NCBI RefSeq assembly: GCF_000826125.2
Contig: NZ_LN651371.1
Coordinates: 110,107-174,106 of the forward strand
Length of the DNA: 64,000 nt
Direction: 5' to 3'
Origin: Bhargavaea cecembensis
GTDB taxonomy: Bacteria > Bacillota > Bacilli > Bacillales_A > Planococcaceae
The notes beneath the pieces were generated by a model that saw only the letters and a list, made by a program, of their open reading frames with translations, made no database searches and was not told the origin of the DNA. Numbering within the stretch: the stretch's first letter is position 1; every line of letters starts with the position of its first letter. The translations under genes were made by a program, and so were the position numbers. Positions 46,310 through 50,897 of this stretch are shown here, in pieces.

Positions 46310-47365
46310 ATGAAAGAAATCCACAGCGACATCATCCAGTTCCGCGGCACCCATTATGACTTCGGGTCTCTTCAAGGCGAGCGGCTGCGGGGTTCATTGA
46401 CCCTTCATAACCGGCAGAGCTCATGGAAAATCCGGAAGCCGCGGTTCCGGATTGACGCAAGTGAAGCGGAAGCCGTCTTCCGGACATATGCCCCCGGTGT
46501 CTGGGAGGAGCTCCGCGGCCTGCGGGATGCGCTCGCCCTCCCAATGGAAGACGTGCTGCGCGACTTCGGCGGCTACCGCTCGGAGATCCCGCGGGCCGGC
46601 TGCTCGACGATCACGGGCGAAGGGTTCATCGCCCGCAATTACGACTTCCATCCGAATACGTACGAAGGACTTTATGCCGCCTTTCAGCCGACGGACGGCG
46701 GACAGGCCGTCATCGGACCGGCCCAGCGGATCACGGGCCGGATGGACGGCCTGAACGAAAGCGGCCTCGCGATGGCGTACAACTTCACCAACCGGAAAAA
46801 GCCCGGCGACGGATTCGTCTGCTGGATGGTCGGCCGCATCCTCCTGGAGACCTGCACAAACGTGGACGACGCGGTCCGGCTCCTGCACGAACTCCCCCAC
46901 CGCGGCTCGTTCAGCTACAACCTGCTCGACAAGGACGGCCGCCGGGCGCTCGTCGAAGCCGGCCCGAGAGGCGTCACCGTCCGGGAGTCTCCGTATTGCT
47001 CGAACCATTTCGAAGTGCAGACAGGCGAAAACCGGCATTACCTGAAAGACTCCATCGAACGGCTGGAGACGATGGAATCCGAACCTGCCGCCCTCTCGGA
47101 TGCCCGGGCGGCCTGGCGCCTCCTGAACGACCGGGAACGCGGCGTCTTCGCCGACAACTACAAAAGCTGGGCCGGCACGATCCACACATCCGCCTACTTC
47201 CCCGAAACACTCACCGCCTGGTTCGCCCTCGGAGGCGACACCGAGCCGGTCGCCTTCGATTTCGGGCGCTGGCTCAAAGGGGAGAATTTTGAACGGGAAA
47301 CCGTGAGCGGCACGGTCGATACGGACATCGGCTTTGCGAACGCGGACCGGTTAAGGGGTAAATGA
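46310..47365 (+). CDS. C45-like Ntn hydrolase (acyltransferase / choloylglycine hydrolase type)
   Basis: A 351-residue protein related to the isopenicillin-N acyltransferase (C45) and YcjI-like Ntn hydrolases. The candidate N-terminal nucleophile is the cysteine in PRAGCSTIT at about residue 100, followed by the typical GEGFIARNYDFHPNTYEGLY, a conserved ITGRMDGLNESGLAMAYNF and NLLDKDGRRALVEAGP. If it follows the family rule, the protein is cleaved before that Cys to expose it. Start ATG at 46310 chosen by AAGGA nine bases upstream. The substrate is unknown. Confidence 0.75.
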   Translation: MKEIHSDIIQFRGTHYDFGSLQGERLRGSLTLHNRQSSWKIRKPRFRIDASEAEAVFRTYAPGVWEELRGLRDALALPMEDVLRDFGGYRSEIPRAGCSTITGEGFIARNYDFHPNTYEGLYAAFQPTDGGQAVIGPAQRITGRMDGLNESGLAMAYNFTNRKKPGDGFVCWMVGRILLETCTNVDDAVRLLHELPHRGSFSYNLLDKDGRRALVEAGPRGVTVRESPYCSNHFEVQTGENRHYLKDSIERLETMESEPAALSDARAAWRLLNDRERGVFADNYKSWAGTIHTSAYFPETLTAWFALGGDTEPVAFDFGRWLKGENFERETVSGTVDTDIGFANADRLRGK

Positions 47366-47390
47366 AAAAGATTTTTTGATTTTCAAAGCG

Positions 47391-47426
47391 GACGCTTCCC
47401 CGGTGGTTTGGAAGCGTCTTTTCTTT
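47391..47426 (+). terminator. Terminator of C45-like gene
   Basis: GACGCTTCC and GGAAGCGTC form a 9-bp stem followed by TTTTCTTT. Confidence 0.9.
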
Positions 47427-47482
47427 CGTCAGGAAATACCATCCTTTATTAAAGGGATAGGGGCACAAAGCGTCTAATACAT

Positions 47483-47495
47483 TGACCAAAGGTCA
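47483..47495. promoter_or_regulatory. Small inverted repeat upstream of signal-peptidase-like gene
   Basis: TGACC-AAA-GGTCA lies 12 bp upstream of the first possible start and overlaps the likely promoter or leader. Confidence 0.35.
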
Positions 47496-47506
47496 TTTTA
47501 GGAGGA

Positions 47507-48130
47507 GTGAGCAGAATAAGGAGAATTTTAGCCTTGACCGCGGTTTCTTTAAGTTTAGTTTTGGCGGCGTGCACGGGGATCGCTGGTGAGCGTGAGGCGA
47601 TGACAGATCTGAAAACCGAGGAATCACTCAAAGAGGTCAGCCAAGATGACCACACCTTTTCACTTGAATGGTCAGTTGATTCGATGGATCGGGGGAATCA
47701 TAATCTCGATACTGAGGTGAACGGGAAACTTGTCGTCTCGAAGAATATTGAACCTCTCGAAAGGGGCGATATTATTTACTATGAGCATGATCAGGATGAA
47801 CACATCGGTAGAGTCGTAGGGCTGCCCGGGGAAACTGTAGAGATTAAAAAGGGCCAGGTGTTCATTGACGGCCGGAAGCTGGATACGTTTTACGGAACAG
47901 CAAGCGTTCGAGGAGTTGGGGAAAAAGAATACTTTGAGAAAACACCGAAGGAAAATTATGATTCTGCAGCAATGAAAGAATACTTTCAGACCCGTATGGA
48001 GCCGGTTGATGTAAAAGACGAGACCGTGTTTGTATTGGTTGATCAGTGGTGGCGGGGATCTGACAGCAAAGATTTCGGGCTGATCCCAAATTCCGAGTTG
48101 AAAGGTGAAATACTAGGTTATGAAAAATAA
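47507..48130 (+). CDS. Signal-peptidase-I-like lipoprotein, catalytic lysine replaced
   Basis: A 207-residue protein with a lipoprotein signal (RRILALTAVSLSLVLAAC). The mature part keeps the S26 signal peptidase layout: SMDRG at the serine position, LERGDIIYYE, GRVVGLPGETVEIKKGQVFI with DGRKLD, and a late VDQWWRGSDSKDFG that matches the G-D-N...S-x-D-S-R box. The lysine before R-V/I-x-G-L-P-G in active enzymes is glycine here (EHIGRVVG), so it is probably not a peptidase. The start is unclear: GTG 47507 is too close to AGGAGG, while an ATA at 47516 is better spaced. Confidence 0.75.
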   Translation: MSRIRRILALTAVSLSLVLAACTGIAGEREAMTDLKTEESLKEVSQDDHTFSLEWSVDSMDRGNHNLDTEVNGKLVVSKNIEPLERGDIIYYEHDQDEHIGRVVGLPGETVEIKKGQVFIDGRKLDTFYGTASVRGVGEKEYFEKTPKENYDSAAMKEYFQTRMEPVDVKDETVFVLVDQWWRGSDSKDFGLIPNSELKGEILGYEK

Positions 48131-48136
48131 AAGGCA

Positions 48137-48168
48137 AAAAAGAGTCCTTTTTGATCAGGACTCTTTTC
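48137..48168 (+). terminator. Terminator of signal-peptidase-like gene
   Basis: AAAAGAGTCCT and AGGACTCTTTT form an 11-bp stem ending in T4. Confidence 0.88.
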
Positions 48169-48237
48169 TATTGTATTTTTTATTACTTGCGCAAGCCGGG
48201 AGTGACTTCGACCAGCTTTTATTTCATGCCGGGAGAC

Positions 48238-48321
48238 GAGTGACGCAAGTTTGGCCTCGAGTGACGCAAGTTTCACGGCAAGTGACGCAAGTTCTCCTCC
48301 GAGTGATCAGAGTTGCATCCC
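48238..48321 (+). repeat. 21-bp tandem repeat array I (4 units, GAGTGACGC type)
   Basis: Units at 48238, 48259, 48280 and 48301; the first three share RAGTGACGCAAGTT, the fourth is decayed (GAGTGATCAGAGTT). Same unit type as array A, 45 kb away. It lies between two convergent transcription units. Confidence 0.9.
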
Positions 48322-48370
48322 GGCCGGCCCACGCAGAACCTACTTGAAGGTGTGATCATTCACTAATACC

Positions 48371-48406
48371 AAAAAATAATGCGAAGCCATCCGCGGCTTC
48401 GCATCT
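48371..48406 (-). terminator. Terminator of the ecsA-ecsB operon
   Basis: ATGCGAAGCC and GGCTTCGCAT form a 10-bp stem with TTATTTTTTGG on the minus strand. Confidence 0.9.
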
Positions 48407-48414
48407 CTTGATAT

Positions 48415-49611
48415 TCATTTCCCGGTAAATCTGACCGTCACTTCGGACACCACATACACCGTCAGTCCAAGCAGGATCGGCACAAACCCGAATCCGAACT
48501 GGAATGACGCCGCCGCGATCACGAGGACCGCCTGGACAGCCTGTGCCCGGCGGACGGTTCCGCGAGCGGCGGCGGCTTTGGCACCGGACGGCAGCGGATA
48601 CAGGCGGTCCAGCCGGAATTCCGGGGAGCCGGCGAGCGCGTCGCGGAGCTGGTAGGCGCAGGCGAATGCGAGTGCGGCGCTGAATATCCCTGATGCGACG
48701 GGGATCGGGATGAACGCTGCTCCGAGGACGGACAGCACCGTCAGCCGCACCCACAGGTTGAACAGGTCATCGCTGCGGATGAACGTCCGGGCGGCAAGAT
48801 ACCGCGGCGCGCCTTTCCGGCTGAACGGAATCCGTGCATACACCCAGTCGAGCCAGCCTCTCCTGCGGACAGCCCCCCGCAGATGCGGGACGTCGGTGAA
48901 TTGATTGGCGAAGCGGTAAAAACGGGTCATGCGGCCATTTTCCAGTTCGATGAAGTGCAGAAACGGGAACGGCACCCCTTTCATCGAGCGCTGCTTCAGC
49001 ACGCCGTATACACCCGCCGGCACGAGCAGCAGGACGCCGAGCCACCATTTGCCCCAGAGGGCGGCCGTTAGCGGGGCGGCCGACAGGATGAAACGGATGA
49101 TCCGGTCCAACCAGACGCCCTCACCCTGATCCGCCCAGCGGTGCGCAAACTCGGTCCGCACGTTCCACAGATGAAGCGCTCCAACCCCGACCACAATCGC
49201 GAGCAGCGCCAGCCCCTTCAGGCCGTACACCGCATTCAAAAGCGGGATGAACACGACGAACACCGCGACCGGCAGGAACAGCCCGGATGCGCCCGTCCAC
49301 TTGAGTGCCCCCTCCATATAATCGCCGAGCTGCCTCTCCATCGGCAGGAAGAACACGGCGTCCGCTTCTTTCAGCAGGGTGACCGGCGGCGCGTAGGCGA
49401 GGATCAAGCCGAGCAGGATGCCGGCGAGCGGCGCGGCCGGGAAGTCTGCAGGCACTTCCTTCAGCCAATTGCTGTAGGCGAAGCCGCCCGCGCCGAGCAG
49501 GAACACGAGGACGATGGCGAGGTGCCCGGTGAAGACGAATTTCATGTAGCGCTGCAGCTCCTCCATGTAGCGGGTGAAGCGGCTGCGCCACACGTCACGC
49601 AGGCTGCCCAT
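48415..49611 (-). CDS. ecsB: ABC transporter permease EcsB
   Basis: A 398-residue membrane protein with about ten helices, close to EcsB in length and position after ecsA. It starts MGSLRDVWRSRFTRYMEELQ; the region EADAVFFLPMERQLGDYMEG and the following helices match the EcsB family. In B. subtilis Ecs is needed for intramembrane protease RasP function, secretion and competence; the transported substrate is unknown. The ATG at 49609-49611 is inside the ecsA end (17-bp overlap). ecsC does not follow here. Confidence 0.85.
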   Translation of the reverse strand: MGSLRDVWRSRFTRYMEELQRYMKFVFTGHLAIVLVFLLGAGGFAYSNWLKEVPADFPAAPLAGILLGLILAYAPPVTLLKEADAVFFLPMERQLGDYMEGALKWTGASGLFLPVAVFVVFIPLLNAVYGLKGLALLAIVVGVGALHLWNVRTEFAHRWADQGEGVWLDRIIRFILSAAPLTAALWGKWWLGVLLLVPAGVYGVLKQRSMKGVPFPFLHFIELENGRMTRFYRFANQFTDVPHLRGAVRRRGWLDWVYARIPFSRKGAPRYLAARTFIRSDDLFNLWVRLTVLSVLGAAFIPIPVASGIFSAALAFACAYQLRDALAGSPEFRLDRLYPLPSGAKAAAARGTVRRAQAVQAVLVIAAASFQFGFGFVPILLGLTVYVVSEVTVRFTGK

Positions 49612-50344
49612 CGTCCGGCTCCTCCGCCATCCGGATGTACAGGTCGTCAAGCGACGCGCCCGGCATGCCGAACTGACTGCGCAAATCATCCATCGTCCCG
49701 GAAGCCCGCAGCCGGCCCTCATGCAGGAGCAGGATCCGGTCGCAGTACTTCTCGGCCGTCGCGAGGATATGCGTCGACATGAGCACCGACGCCCCCTCCG
49801 CCTTCTTCTCGCTCATCTGCTCGAGCAGCGAACGGATCCCGAGCGGATCGAGGCCGACGAACGGCTCGTCGATGATGTACAGCGACGGATTCACGAGGAA
49901 CGCGCACATGATCATCACTTTCTGGCGCATCCCCTTGGAAAAGTGCGACGGGAACCAGCGCAGCCGCTTCTCCATCCGGAATTCGCGAAGAAGAGCCGCG
50001 GACCTTGCCTCGAATACGTCGCTCGGCAAACCGTACGCCATCGCCGTCAACTCCAGGTGCTCCCGCAGCGTCAGTTCATCGTAGAGAACCGGCGTCTCCG
50101 GGATATAGGAGAACGCACTCCGGTACTTGTCCGGGTCTTCATGAAAGGACGTGCCATTGATGCGCACTGACCCCTCGATCGGCTCCATGAGGCCGATGAT
50201 GTGCTTGATCGTCGTGCTCTTTCCTGCCCCGTTCAACCCGATCAGGCCGACAAGCTCGCCCGGCGCGACCTGGAACGACAGGTTGTGAAGGACCGGCTTG
50301 CGCGTATAGCCGCCGGTGATATGATCTACTTCCAATACGTTCAT
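49595..50344 (-). CDS. ecsA: ABC transporter ATP-binding protein EcsA
   Basis: A 249-residue ATPase with Walker A (GLNGAGKSTT near residue 38), Q-loop (YIPETPVLYDELT), a signature FSKGMRQKVMIMCAF in place of the usual S-G-G-Q form, Walker B (LYIIDEPFVGLD) and H-loop (MSTHI). SKGMRQKVM and MNVLEVDHITGGYTRKPVLH are typical of EcsA. Divergent from hit, as in B. subtilis. The ATG at 50342-50344 is preceded by GGGGTG; the longer frame runs through the intergenic region. Confidence 0.92.
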   Translation of the reverse strand: MNVLEVDHITGGYTRKPVLHNLSFQVAPGELVGLIGLNGAGKSTTIKHIIGLMEPIEGSVRINGTSFHEDPDKYRSAFSYIPETPVLYDELTLREHLELTAMAYGLPSDVFEARSAALLREFRMEKRLRWFPSHFSKGMRQKVMIMCAFLVNPSLYIIDEPFVGLDPLGIRSLLEQMSEKKAEGASVLMSTHILATAEKYCDRILLLHEGRLRASGTMDDLRSQFGMPGASLDDLYIRMAEEPDDGQPA

Positions 50345-50468
50345 GTCCACACCCCATTCTTCCCTCCATTTTAACAAACCGGATTCCTTTTTGCCCGCAC
50401 TGCCTGTCCTCCGTTTTCTGAATATATGATAGACTGTTGTTAGGATATGAAAAAGGAGCTGTTGACCG

Positions 50469-50897
50469 ATGACTGAATGCATTTTCTGCAAGATTGCCGA
50501 AGGCACGATCCCGTCCGCGAAGGTGTATGAAGACGACAACGTCCTGGCGTTCATGGACATCATGCCGACGACGAAGGGACATGTCCTCCTCATCCCGAAG
50601 GTCCACCGCGAGAACATCTATGAGTTCAGCGAGGAAGAAGCGGCAAACCTGTTCGCGGTTGCGCCGAAGATCGCAAACGCACTCAAGGCGGAGTTTGAGC
50701 CGGCCGGCATGAACCTCCTGAACAATACAGGGTCGGCGGCAAGCCAGAGCGTCTACCACTTCCACCTTCACTTCATCCCCCGCTATGACCGCCAGACGGA
50801 CGGCTTTGGGCTCAAGTGGGAGACGAAGGAACAGGAGTATCCGCAGGAGCGGCTACAGGAAATCGCCGGCGACATCGCGGCACGTCTTGAAAAGTAA
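50469..50897 (+). CDS. hit: HIT-family protein Hit
   Basis: A 142-residue nucleotide hydrolase/transferase of the Hint branch. The histidine triad is QSVYHFHLHFIPRY (H-x-H-x-H); zinc-type cysteines lie at the start (CIFCKI) with EGTIPSAKVYEDDNVLAFMD following. AAAGGAG precedes the ATG. Located between ecsA and trpP as in B. subtilis. It probably acts on purine phosphoramidates or dinucleoside phosphates. Confidence 0.95.
   Translation: MTECIFCKIAEGTIPSAKVYEDDNVLAFMDIMPTTKGHVLLIPKVHRENIYEFSEEEAANLFAVAPKIANALKAEFEPAGMNLLNNTGSAASQSVYHFHLHFIPRYDRQTDGFGLKWETKEQEYPQERLQEIAGDIAARLEK

What the first reader, a model, noticed from the sequence alone, without database searches (positions are those of the whole stretch)
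47507..48130. Signal-peptidase fold displayed as a lipoprotein without the catalytic lysine
The serine is kept, but the lysine of the Ser-Lys dyad is glycine (EHIGRVVG), the later G-D-N box is VDQ, and the membrane anchor is replaced by a lipobox. This looks like an exported protein that uses the peptidase fold for binding, or a pseudo-enzyme.
Basis: partly seen in the sequence, partly recalled or inferred. Interest (0 to 1): 0.6.

Follow-up and report, generated by a model that had tools for sequence, protein, structure and literature searches.

The report
Dead signal-peptidase fold as sensor lipoprotein
The gene makes a lipid-anchored protein with the shape of the enzyme that cuts signal peptides but without its working parts; in many relatives the same dead domain sits outside the cell on a predicted switch protein that controls a stress sigma factor, so it probably binds and reports something rather than cutting it.

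Summary
Window 47507-48130 encodes a 207-residue protein with a lipobox, a Peptidase_S26 domain, Ser59, Gly101 where signal peptidase I has its base Lys, and VDQ for GDN. A model (pLDDT 87) best matches SipA, itself an inactive signal-peptidase homologue (Z 12.6). Across 83 aligned family sequences, window included, the Lys position is Lys once and the Ser position Ser in 21; both together in 0 of 85. No other lysine is conserved, while family-specific motifs (MDRGNH, DxW[WF]RG) replace the catalytic boxes. The kept serine is incidental.

New: in 51 of 85 unique sequences the dead domain is the ectodomain of a one-TM protein encoded directly behind an ECF sigma factor, against 0 of 70 other S26 loci; half of the sigma operons carry an ECF-type promoter pattern, and paralogous operons keep the N-terminus but swap the ectodomain. 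I infer a sensor domain of anti-sigma factors; the window protein is a stand-alone lipid-anchored version, present in 2 of 8 genomes of its genus. The ligand is unknown, perhaps signal peptides. Nothing was assayed.

The parts
47507..48130 (+). pseudo-signal-peptidase lipoprotein gene (207 aa as read from GTG; an ATA start at 47516 is possible)
47500..47505 (+). Shine-Dalgarno AGGAGG, one base before the GTG, ten before ATA 47516
   Evidence: sequence
47561..47572 (+). lipobox LAAC, residues 19-22 (predicted lipid-anchored Cys22)
   Evidence: sequence; 24 of 83 family sequences classed as lipoproteins by a motif rule
47681..47701 (+). Ser59 plus MDRGNH (60-65): place of the SPase nucleophile and SMxPT box; Met 83/83, Asp61 76/83, Arg62 72/83, Gly63 80/83, Ser59 column Ser only 21/83
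47807..47809 (+). Gly101 at the position of the SPase general-base Lys (Lys in 1 of 83 family sequences, in 4 of 4 SPases aligned)
48038..48058 (+). VDQWWRG (178-184): place of the SPase GDN...S box; Asp179 83/83, Trp181 80/83; Gly184 replaces the Lys-orienting Ser
48138..48167 (+). terminator-like hairpin behind the gene (consensus match only)
47471..47477 (+). CGTCTAA upstream of the gene, conserved with G003; same letters as the -10-like box of the sigma operons of Sporosarcina-type relatives, but no matching -35-like box here
   Evidence: promoter role unproved

Best explanation
The protein is a catalytically dead type-I signal-peptidase ectodomain held on the outer face of the membrane by a lipid anchor. 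It belongs to a family of pseudo-signal-peptidase domains of Planococcaceae and other Bacilli whose commonest form in my sample is the extracytoplasmic domain of a one-TM protein encoded directly behind an ECF sigma factor. Shown by calls: fold (model), loss of the dyad across the family, conserved replacement motifs, sigma adjacency, promoter patterns, exchange of the ectodomain between otherwise alike proteins. Inferred: that these membrane proteins are anti-sigma factors; that the former substrate cleft is a ligand (probably peptide) binding site; that ligand binding opens the anti-sigma factor to site-1 cleavage and frees the sigma factor, as in B. subtilis RsiV. The window protein keeps only the binding half: most likely a stand-alone receptor, co-receptor or decoy for the same class of ligand, without a coupled sigma factor of its own.
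For: Fold: model pLDDT 87.1, SipA 4n31 Z 12.6 (rmsd 2.8, 128 aligned), SpsB Z 11.8, LepB 1b12 Z 10.3. Dead site: Ser+Lys together in 0 of 85 unique sequences, Lys 1 of 83, Ser 21 of 83, no alternative conserved Lys; 69 of 70 other S26 loci keep the Lys. Constraint: MDRGNH and DxW[WF]RG conserved; dN/dS 0.255 against the G003 ortholog. Sigma link: ECF frame directly upstream in 51 of 85, in 49 of them between -79 and +19 bases of the open frame; 0 of 70 at the other S26 loci, 65 of which have at least 600 bases upstream; 6 of 6 sigma proteins scanned carry Sigma70_r2 and r4_2. Promoters: AAC-N15-18-CGTC[TA] in 26 of 52 sigma-operon upstreams, 1.68 expected from mononucleotide shuffles. Anatomy: two short helices, a helix at the TM place, SPase fold in a Planococcus member. 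Sensor exchange: paralogous operons with near-identical N-terminus and another ectodomain in 4 of 8 loci read. Stand-alone and coupled forms interleave in the tree and lie in one row in L211.
Against: No curated model recognises the cytosolic N-termini of the 5 fused proteins scanned as anti-sigma domains; in the model that part has low confidence (blocks of pLDDT 52-71). The sigma profile was built from nine of the same sigma proteins. The window genome has no second pseudo-signal peptidase, so a sigma link for this very protein is by relationship only; its upstream region lacks the -35-like box. 34 of 85 sequences have no ECF gene detected upstream, 31 of them with at least 600 bases to look at. 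The tree is a quick one with 24 weak branches. No ligand, binding or cleavage was tested; the lipid anchor is predicted from a motif. The window gene is under weaker constraint (0.255) than the five neighbours tested (0.055-0.13).
Confidence: 0.62

Rival explanations
1. SipA-like assembly factor or chaperone: the dead cleft binds one particular exported protein and helps its placement at the cell surface, with no signalling role for the stand-alone lipoproteins.
For: SipA is the best structural match, lacks the dyad (Asp, Gly) and holds a peptide in its cleft in the crystal (PMC4049620, passages). The stand-alone forms have no ECF gene detected upstream.
Against: No pilin or sortase among the 8 neighbouring proteins scanned: M20 peptidase, two ABC permeases, AAT acyltransferase, EcsB, ABC ATPase, HIT, TrpP. 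Near relatives in the tree are sigma-coupled.
Confidence: 0.2
2. Modulator of the true signal peptidase: the dead copy pairs with or competes with the active SPase I, or titrates pre-proteins from it.
For: The genome has one active-looking SPase I with SMMPTL and KRIIG. Inactive SPase I partners such as staphylococcal SpsA are known (recalled).
Against: The gene is missing at this site, and no family match at 1e-18 was found, in 6 of 8 genomes of the genus; does not explain the sigma coupling.
Confidence: 0.1
3. A hydrolase with another catalytic set, for example the conserved Asp58, Asp61, His65 and Asp179.
For: These residues are strongly conserved (Asp58 78/83, Asp61 76/83, His65 65/82, Asp179 83/83).
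Against: The place of the nucleophile is not conserved (Ala 29, Ser 21, Asn 15, Thr 13 of 83); Asp179 is also Asp in 4 of 4 SPases aligned; SipA with the same kind of losses shows no detectable peptidase activity (PMC4049620, passages).
Confidence: 0.05
4. A decaying signal-peptidase copy without function.
For: Patchy presence (2 of 8 genomes), weaker constraint than neighbours; a few family members elsewhere are broken by stops (G051:C40, G195, G029, G135).
Against: dN/dS 0.255 is still purifying; the profile matches 72 of 261 genomes of the family, 69 of them with at least one match free of stops, with conserved novel motifs.
Confidence: 0.03

Closest known systems
Streptococcus pyogenes SipA (LepA), PDB 4n31, PMC4049620 (passages seen)
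   Same: SPase I fold without the Ser-Lys dyad; Lys replaced by Gly as here; peptide-binding cleft kept; extracellular
   Different: Asp at the Ser position, N-terminal TM helix, works in pilus assembly; no sigma factor named in the passages seen
Type I signal peptidase (S. aureus SpsB, E. coli LepB, B. subtilis SipS)
   Same: fold and the boxes RGD, RVVGLPG, D-S-[RK] are recognisable
   Different: no general-base Lys, no Lys-orienting Ser, variable Ser; lipobox or cytosolic-plus-TM N-terminus instead of the SPase N-terminus
B. subtilis RsiV / sigma-V (PMC4183432, passages seen)
   Same: ECF sigma factor with a membrane anti-sigma partner that is itself the receptor
   Different: RsiV binds lysozyme and is then cut by signal peptidase; here the ectodomain is itself a dead signal peptidase
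B. thuringiensis PbpP / RsiP / sigma-P (PMC8092216, passages seen)
   Same: a protein with the fold of an envelope enzyme serves as sensor for an ECF sigma factor
   Different: PbpP is a separate beta-lactam-binding PBP with its serine; not fused to the anti-sigma factor
CnrY, class II anti-sigma factor (PMC7406223, passages seen)
   Same: short two-helix sigma-binding part, as modelled here with low confidence
   Different: no sequence relation was tested; a different organism and signal

Membership tests
Type I signal peptidase (S26A) | SPase I fold / PF10502 | tested here: met
Type I signal peptidase (S26A) | general-base Lys in the K-R-V-[IV]-G box | tested here: not met
   Gly101; Lys in 1 of 83 family sequences, in 4 of 4 SPases aligned
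Type I signal peptidase (S26A) | nucleophile Ser | tested here: inconclusive
   present in the window protein, in only 21 of 83 family sequences
Type I signal peptidase (S26A) | peptidase activity | not testable with these tools
   needs an assay
SipA-type pseudo-signal peptidases | SPase fold without the Ser-Lys dyad | tested here: met
   0 of 85 with Ser+Lys
SipA-type pseudo-signal peptidases | pilus/sortase gene neighbourhood | tested here: not met
   none among the 8 neighbouring proteins scanned
ECF anti-sigma factor (sigma-coupled relatives, not the window protein) | gene directly downstream of an ECF sigma factor | tested here: met
   51 of 85 unique sequences
ECF anti-sigma factor (sigma-coupled relatives, not the window protein) | cytosolic sigma-binding domain plus TM helix | tested here: inconclusive
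   two helices and a TM helix modelled, the first part at low confidence; no curated anti-sigma model matched the 5 proteins scanned
ECF anti-sigma factor (sigma-coupled relatives, not the window protein) | inhibits the cognate sigma factor | not testable with these tools
   needs genetics
ECF anti-sigma factor (the window protein itself) | cytosolic domain and cognate sigma gene | tested here: not met
   lipobox N-terminus, no sigma gene among the neighbours scanned
Bacterial lipoprotein | signal peptide with lipobox | tested here: met
   LAAC behind an Arg-rich n-region and hydrophobic stretch (by eye); lipidation itself not tested

The most novel reading that the evidence does not exclude
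Bacilli have turned the signal peptidase itself into a gauge of protein export: a dead copy of the enzyme on an anti-sigma factor holds unprocessed signal peptides, or compounds aimed at the enzyme, in its former substrate cleft and thereby switches an ECF sigma factor; the lipid-anchored stand-alone form is a co-receptor or decoy for the same ligand. An HtrA-like membrane protease behind the same promoter pattern in 7 of 7 Planococcus-type genomes examined fits an export-stress regulon, though related promoter boxes also occur before such genes in genomes without this sigma factor.
Probability: 0.2. Interest if true: 0.85.

Novelty: new variant of a known kind. Interest (0 to 1): 0.6.

Why it matters
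Inactive signal peptidases are known (SipA), and anti-sigma factors carry many ectodomains, but a dead signal peptidase as the exchangeable ectodomain of ECF anti-sigma factors did not appear in the listings of the papers I could search. If right, it gives a direct way to ask whether bacteria measure export load or signal-peptidase inhibition with a copy of the enzyme. It also bears on annotation: a member is labelled 'lepB, signal peptidase I' in its public record, and the window protein and 3 of the 5 sigma-coupled members scanned pass the TIGR02227 signal-peptidase-I cut-off.

Tried and rejected
Alternative lysine in the active site: rejected by conservation; distances in the model could not be measured because no coordinates are given. 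Ordinary signal peptidase: rejected by the dyad loss across the family. Mobile-element cargo: the plasmid search gave 4 records; the one looked at is a family member on a Planococcus lenghuensis plasmid, the other three were not examined; no mobile element was looked for at the window site. Regulon by promoter pattern: GAAACT-N16-CGTCTAT was derived from the sigma operons themselves, so its presence there proves nothing; what is informative is the second copy, before an HtrA-like protease, in 7 of 7 genomes of group g7 (that of P. beigongshangi) and in 0 of 4 of group g18. HtrA relatives in g7 genomes without the coupled form also carry related boxes (L289, L293, L299, L300), so the link is not specific. 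The CGTTAC pattern was likewise derived from the 9 genomes in which it was counted; it occurs once in each, so no second target was found, with 1 reversed-pattern control hit. PRK09416 (LstR) match to one N-terminus: weak (21.9 bits, cut-off 112), not pursued. ECF promoter for the window gene: only the CGTCTAA half is there. No Rfam family at gathering threshold in 47300-48420. Literature for a described S26 anti-sigma factor: searches showed none in the rows listed; only 12 of 19, 47 and 450 papers were listed, and the main ECF classification paper is not held, so absence from print is not shown.

Counts and rows dropped: five places were left out of the tally (G051:C40, G041:C162, and the fragmentary G195, G029, G135). 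Duplicates by identical last 120 residues took 99 to 85, window included. Two truncated rows (L155, L061) left the tree, giving 83. L178 was put with the coupled rows in the tree because the tail of a broken ECF gene is in its frame; it is not among the 51. L062 was classed TM by the motif rule but may be a lipoprotein. Of the 34 uncoupled rows three have under 600 bases upstream. The eight further sequences (none with Ser+Lys as I read them by eye) are not in these counts. In one search the Ser motif was not recognised by my pattern in 33 of 70 loci and read Ala in 2, so only the Lys count is used; 5 of the 70 have under 600 bases upstream. Of 14 Sigma70_r2 matches in the own genome I read the frames behind 9.

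Full report
What is there. The frame 47507-48130 on the plus strand is open, starts with GTG and encodes 207 residues with an Arg-rich n-region, a hydrophobic stretch and the lipobox LAAC. Pfam gives Peptidase_S26 (2.8e-18) and NCBIfam signal peptidase I (8.6e-18), both above their cut-offs; a solved signal peptidase is found by sequence at 9e-7. Two points are added: the Ser that in active enzymes holds the Lys is Gly184, and the start codon is doubtful, since the Shine-Dalgarno abuts the GTG and the G003 ortholog has GGG there, whereas an ATA nine bases further on is shared by both.

Fold. An AlphaFold2 model from 21 sequences has mean pLDDT 87.1 and pTM 0.78. Among solved structures the best match is SipA of S. 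pyogenes (Z 12.6, rmsd 2.8, 128 residues), then SpsB (11.8) and LepB (10.3 for 1b12), above the lambda-repressor and LexA-like rows that begin at 7.4. SipA is an inactive signal-peptidase homologue with Asp and Gly for Ser and Lys and with a neighbour's peptide in its cleft in the crystal (PMC4049620, passages seen).

Family. The own genome has one ordinary signal peptidase and this protein as its only Peptidase_S26 matches. A profile matches 72 of 261 genomes of the same taxonomic family at E 1e-18, three of them (G195, G029, G135) only with stretches that hold stops. A class-wide draw of 398 gives 24 genomes, of which 4 (G066, G451, G514, G538) hold only ordinary signal peptidases at that limit. 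Named carriers include Sporosarcina, Solibacillus, Paenisporosarcina, Lysinibacillus, Planococcus, Jeotgalibacillus, Neobacillus, Sutcliffiella and Paenibacillus (L050-L070). Of 99 collected sequences 85 are unique, window included; none has Ser and Lys together. In an alignment of 83 of them the Lys column reads Gly 42, Ser 22, Ala 15, Thr 2, Lys 1; the Ser column Ala 29, Ser 21, Asn 15, Thr 13; no lysine of the aligned window ectodomain (residues 50-207) is Lys in more than 46 of 83; the four aligned signal peptidases keep Ser, Lys and the Lys-orienting Ser. In contrast Met60 (83), Asp61 (76), Arg62 (72), Gly63 (80), His65 (65 of 82), Arg102 (83), Asp179 (83) and Trp181 (80) are conserved. 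A dead active site surrounded by a new conserved motif speaks for a binding site; this step is inference.

Sigma coupling. In 51 of the 85 an ECF sigma frame ends close before the start of the open frame on the same strand, in 49 between -79 and +19 bases. These proteins have a cytosolic stretch and then a hydrophobic segment; my motif rule found a lipobox-like match in one of them (L194) and could not measure one (L192). The 34 others comprise 24 lipoproteins and 7 short-TM forms by the motif rule, two truncated rows and L178. At 70 loci of other S26 matches, 69 with the Lys, none has an ECF gene upstream and one locus has an ECF match anywhere; 65 of the 70 have at least 600 bases upstream. 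The sigma profile was built from nine of these sigma proteins; independently, 6 of 6 sigma proteins scanned carry Sigma70_r2 and r4_2 in Pfam. The five fused proteins scanned match only Peptidase_S26 in Pfam, so the anti-sigma role is inferred from position, topology and promoters. The model of a Planococcus member shows two short helices (low confidence), a long helix at the TM place and the signal-peptidase fold (SipA Z 13.5; [quoted passage not shown]

Promoters and exchange of the ectodomain. Upstream of the sigma genes AAC-N15-18-CGTC[TA] occurs in 26 of 52 regions, 1.68 expected from mononucleotide shuffles; in 2 of 33 upstreams of the uncoupled forms, 0.89 expected, one of the two being L178 with its broken sigma gene. 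Two types are visible: TGAAAC(TATT)-CGTCTAT and CGTTAC-CGTCTAA. The second occurs once in each of the 9 Sporosarcina-type genomes from which it was derived, at the sigma operon, so no second target was found. The first, sought in 36 further genomes, matches in 18; of eight such loci read, four (L266, L272, L275, L277) are paralogous sigma operons whose second protein has nearly the same N-terminus (MNRFKRDMDKFIGESP and the like) but another ectodomain: the dead signal peptidase is one of several exchangeable ectodomains. The first pattern also precedes an HtrA-like protease (Trypsin_2) in 7 of 7 genomes of group g7 with the coupled form and in 0 of 4 of group g18, but related boxes stand before HtrA relatives in g7 genomes without the coupled form, so this is a hint only.

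Evolution. On a quick maximum-likelihood tree of 83 family rows and 4 signal peptidases the family is separate from the latter (99), and sigma-coupled, lipoprotein and short-TM forms interleave with at least 12 changes; well-supported branches alone force 4 changes of the coupled state; 24 of 84 inner branches are weak and some long branches may be misplaced. The window protein and its G003 ortholog lie in a well-supported set of 28 rows of which 20 are sigma-coupled. In L211, from another family of the class, a sigma gene, a coupled pseudo-signal peptidase and a stand-alone one follow each other. In the window's genus the gene is present in 2 of 8 genomes; the other 6 have the same two flanking regions 194 to 272 bases apart without it. 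dN/dS against G003 is 0.255, against 0.055-0.13 for five neighbouring genes.

How it most likely works. The ectodomain binds a ligand, probably a peptide, in the old substrate cleft. In coupled forms binding would expose the anti-sigma factor to site-1 cleavage, as lysozyme does for RsiV (PMC4183432, passages seen). PbpP shows that an envelope-enzyme fold can serve as sensor for an ECF sigma factor (PMC8092216, passages seen). The window protein keeps the binding domain on a lipid anchor and its genome has no coupled form; of its 14 Sigma70_r2 matches I read the frames behind 9 and saw no pseudo-signal peptidase. Receptor, co-receptor or decoy are therefore open. Its gene lies tail to tail with ecsB of an EcsB, ABC ATPase and HIT group; EcsAB is linked to secretion and to the site-2 protease in B. 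subtilis (recalled), which is suggestive but concerns only the two genomes that have the gene here.

Verdict. The larger finding is a family of dead signal-peptidase ectodomains, in the majority of sequences sampled attached to predicted ECF anti-sigma factors. I saw no description of it in the listings of the held papers, while the main ECF classification paper was not available.

Noticed in passing
window 48237-48306: About three 21-bp tandem units (CGAGTGACGCAAGTTT...) directly behind the gene; similar stretches occur at many other places of the genome.
   Followed up: partly
window 48415-50897: EcsB, ABC ATPase and HIT genes next to the lipoprotein gene; ecsAB is tied to secretion and intramembrane proteolysis in B. 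subtilis (recalled).
   Followed up: no
L211:1498-3496 (-): Sigma gene, coupled pseudo-signal peptidase (His at the Lys position, as read) and stand-alone pseudo-signal peptidase in a row.
   Followed up: partly
L266, L272, L275, L277: Paralogous ECF/anti-sigma-like operons with the same N-terminus and a different ectodomain (L266: weak DUF4871 match below cut-off).
   Followed up: partly
L188: The only unique sequence with Lys at the base position has Asp at the Ser position, the mirror of the window's Ser/Gly.
   Followed up: no
L330 (Planococcus lenghuensis plasmid NZ_CP019641.1): A family member on a 329-kb plasmid typed as mobilizable, annotated as lepB signal peptidase I.
   Followed up: no
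window 47507-47518: Start codon doubtful; ATA at 47516 conserved with G003 while the GTG is not.
   Followed up: partly
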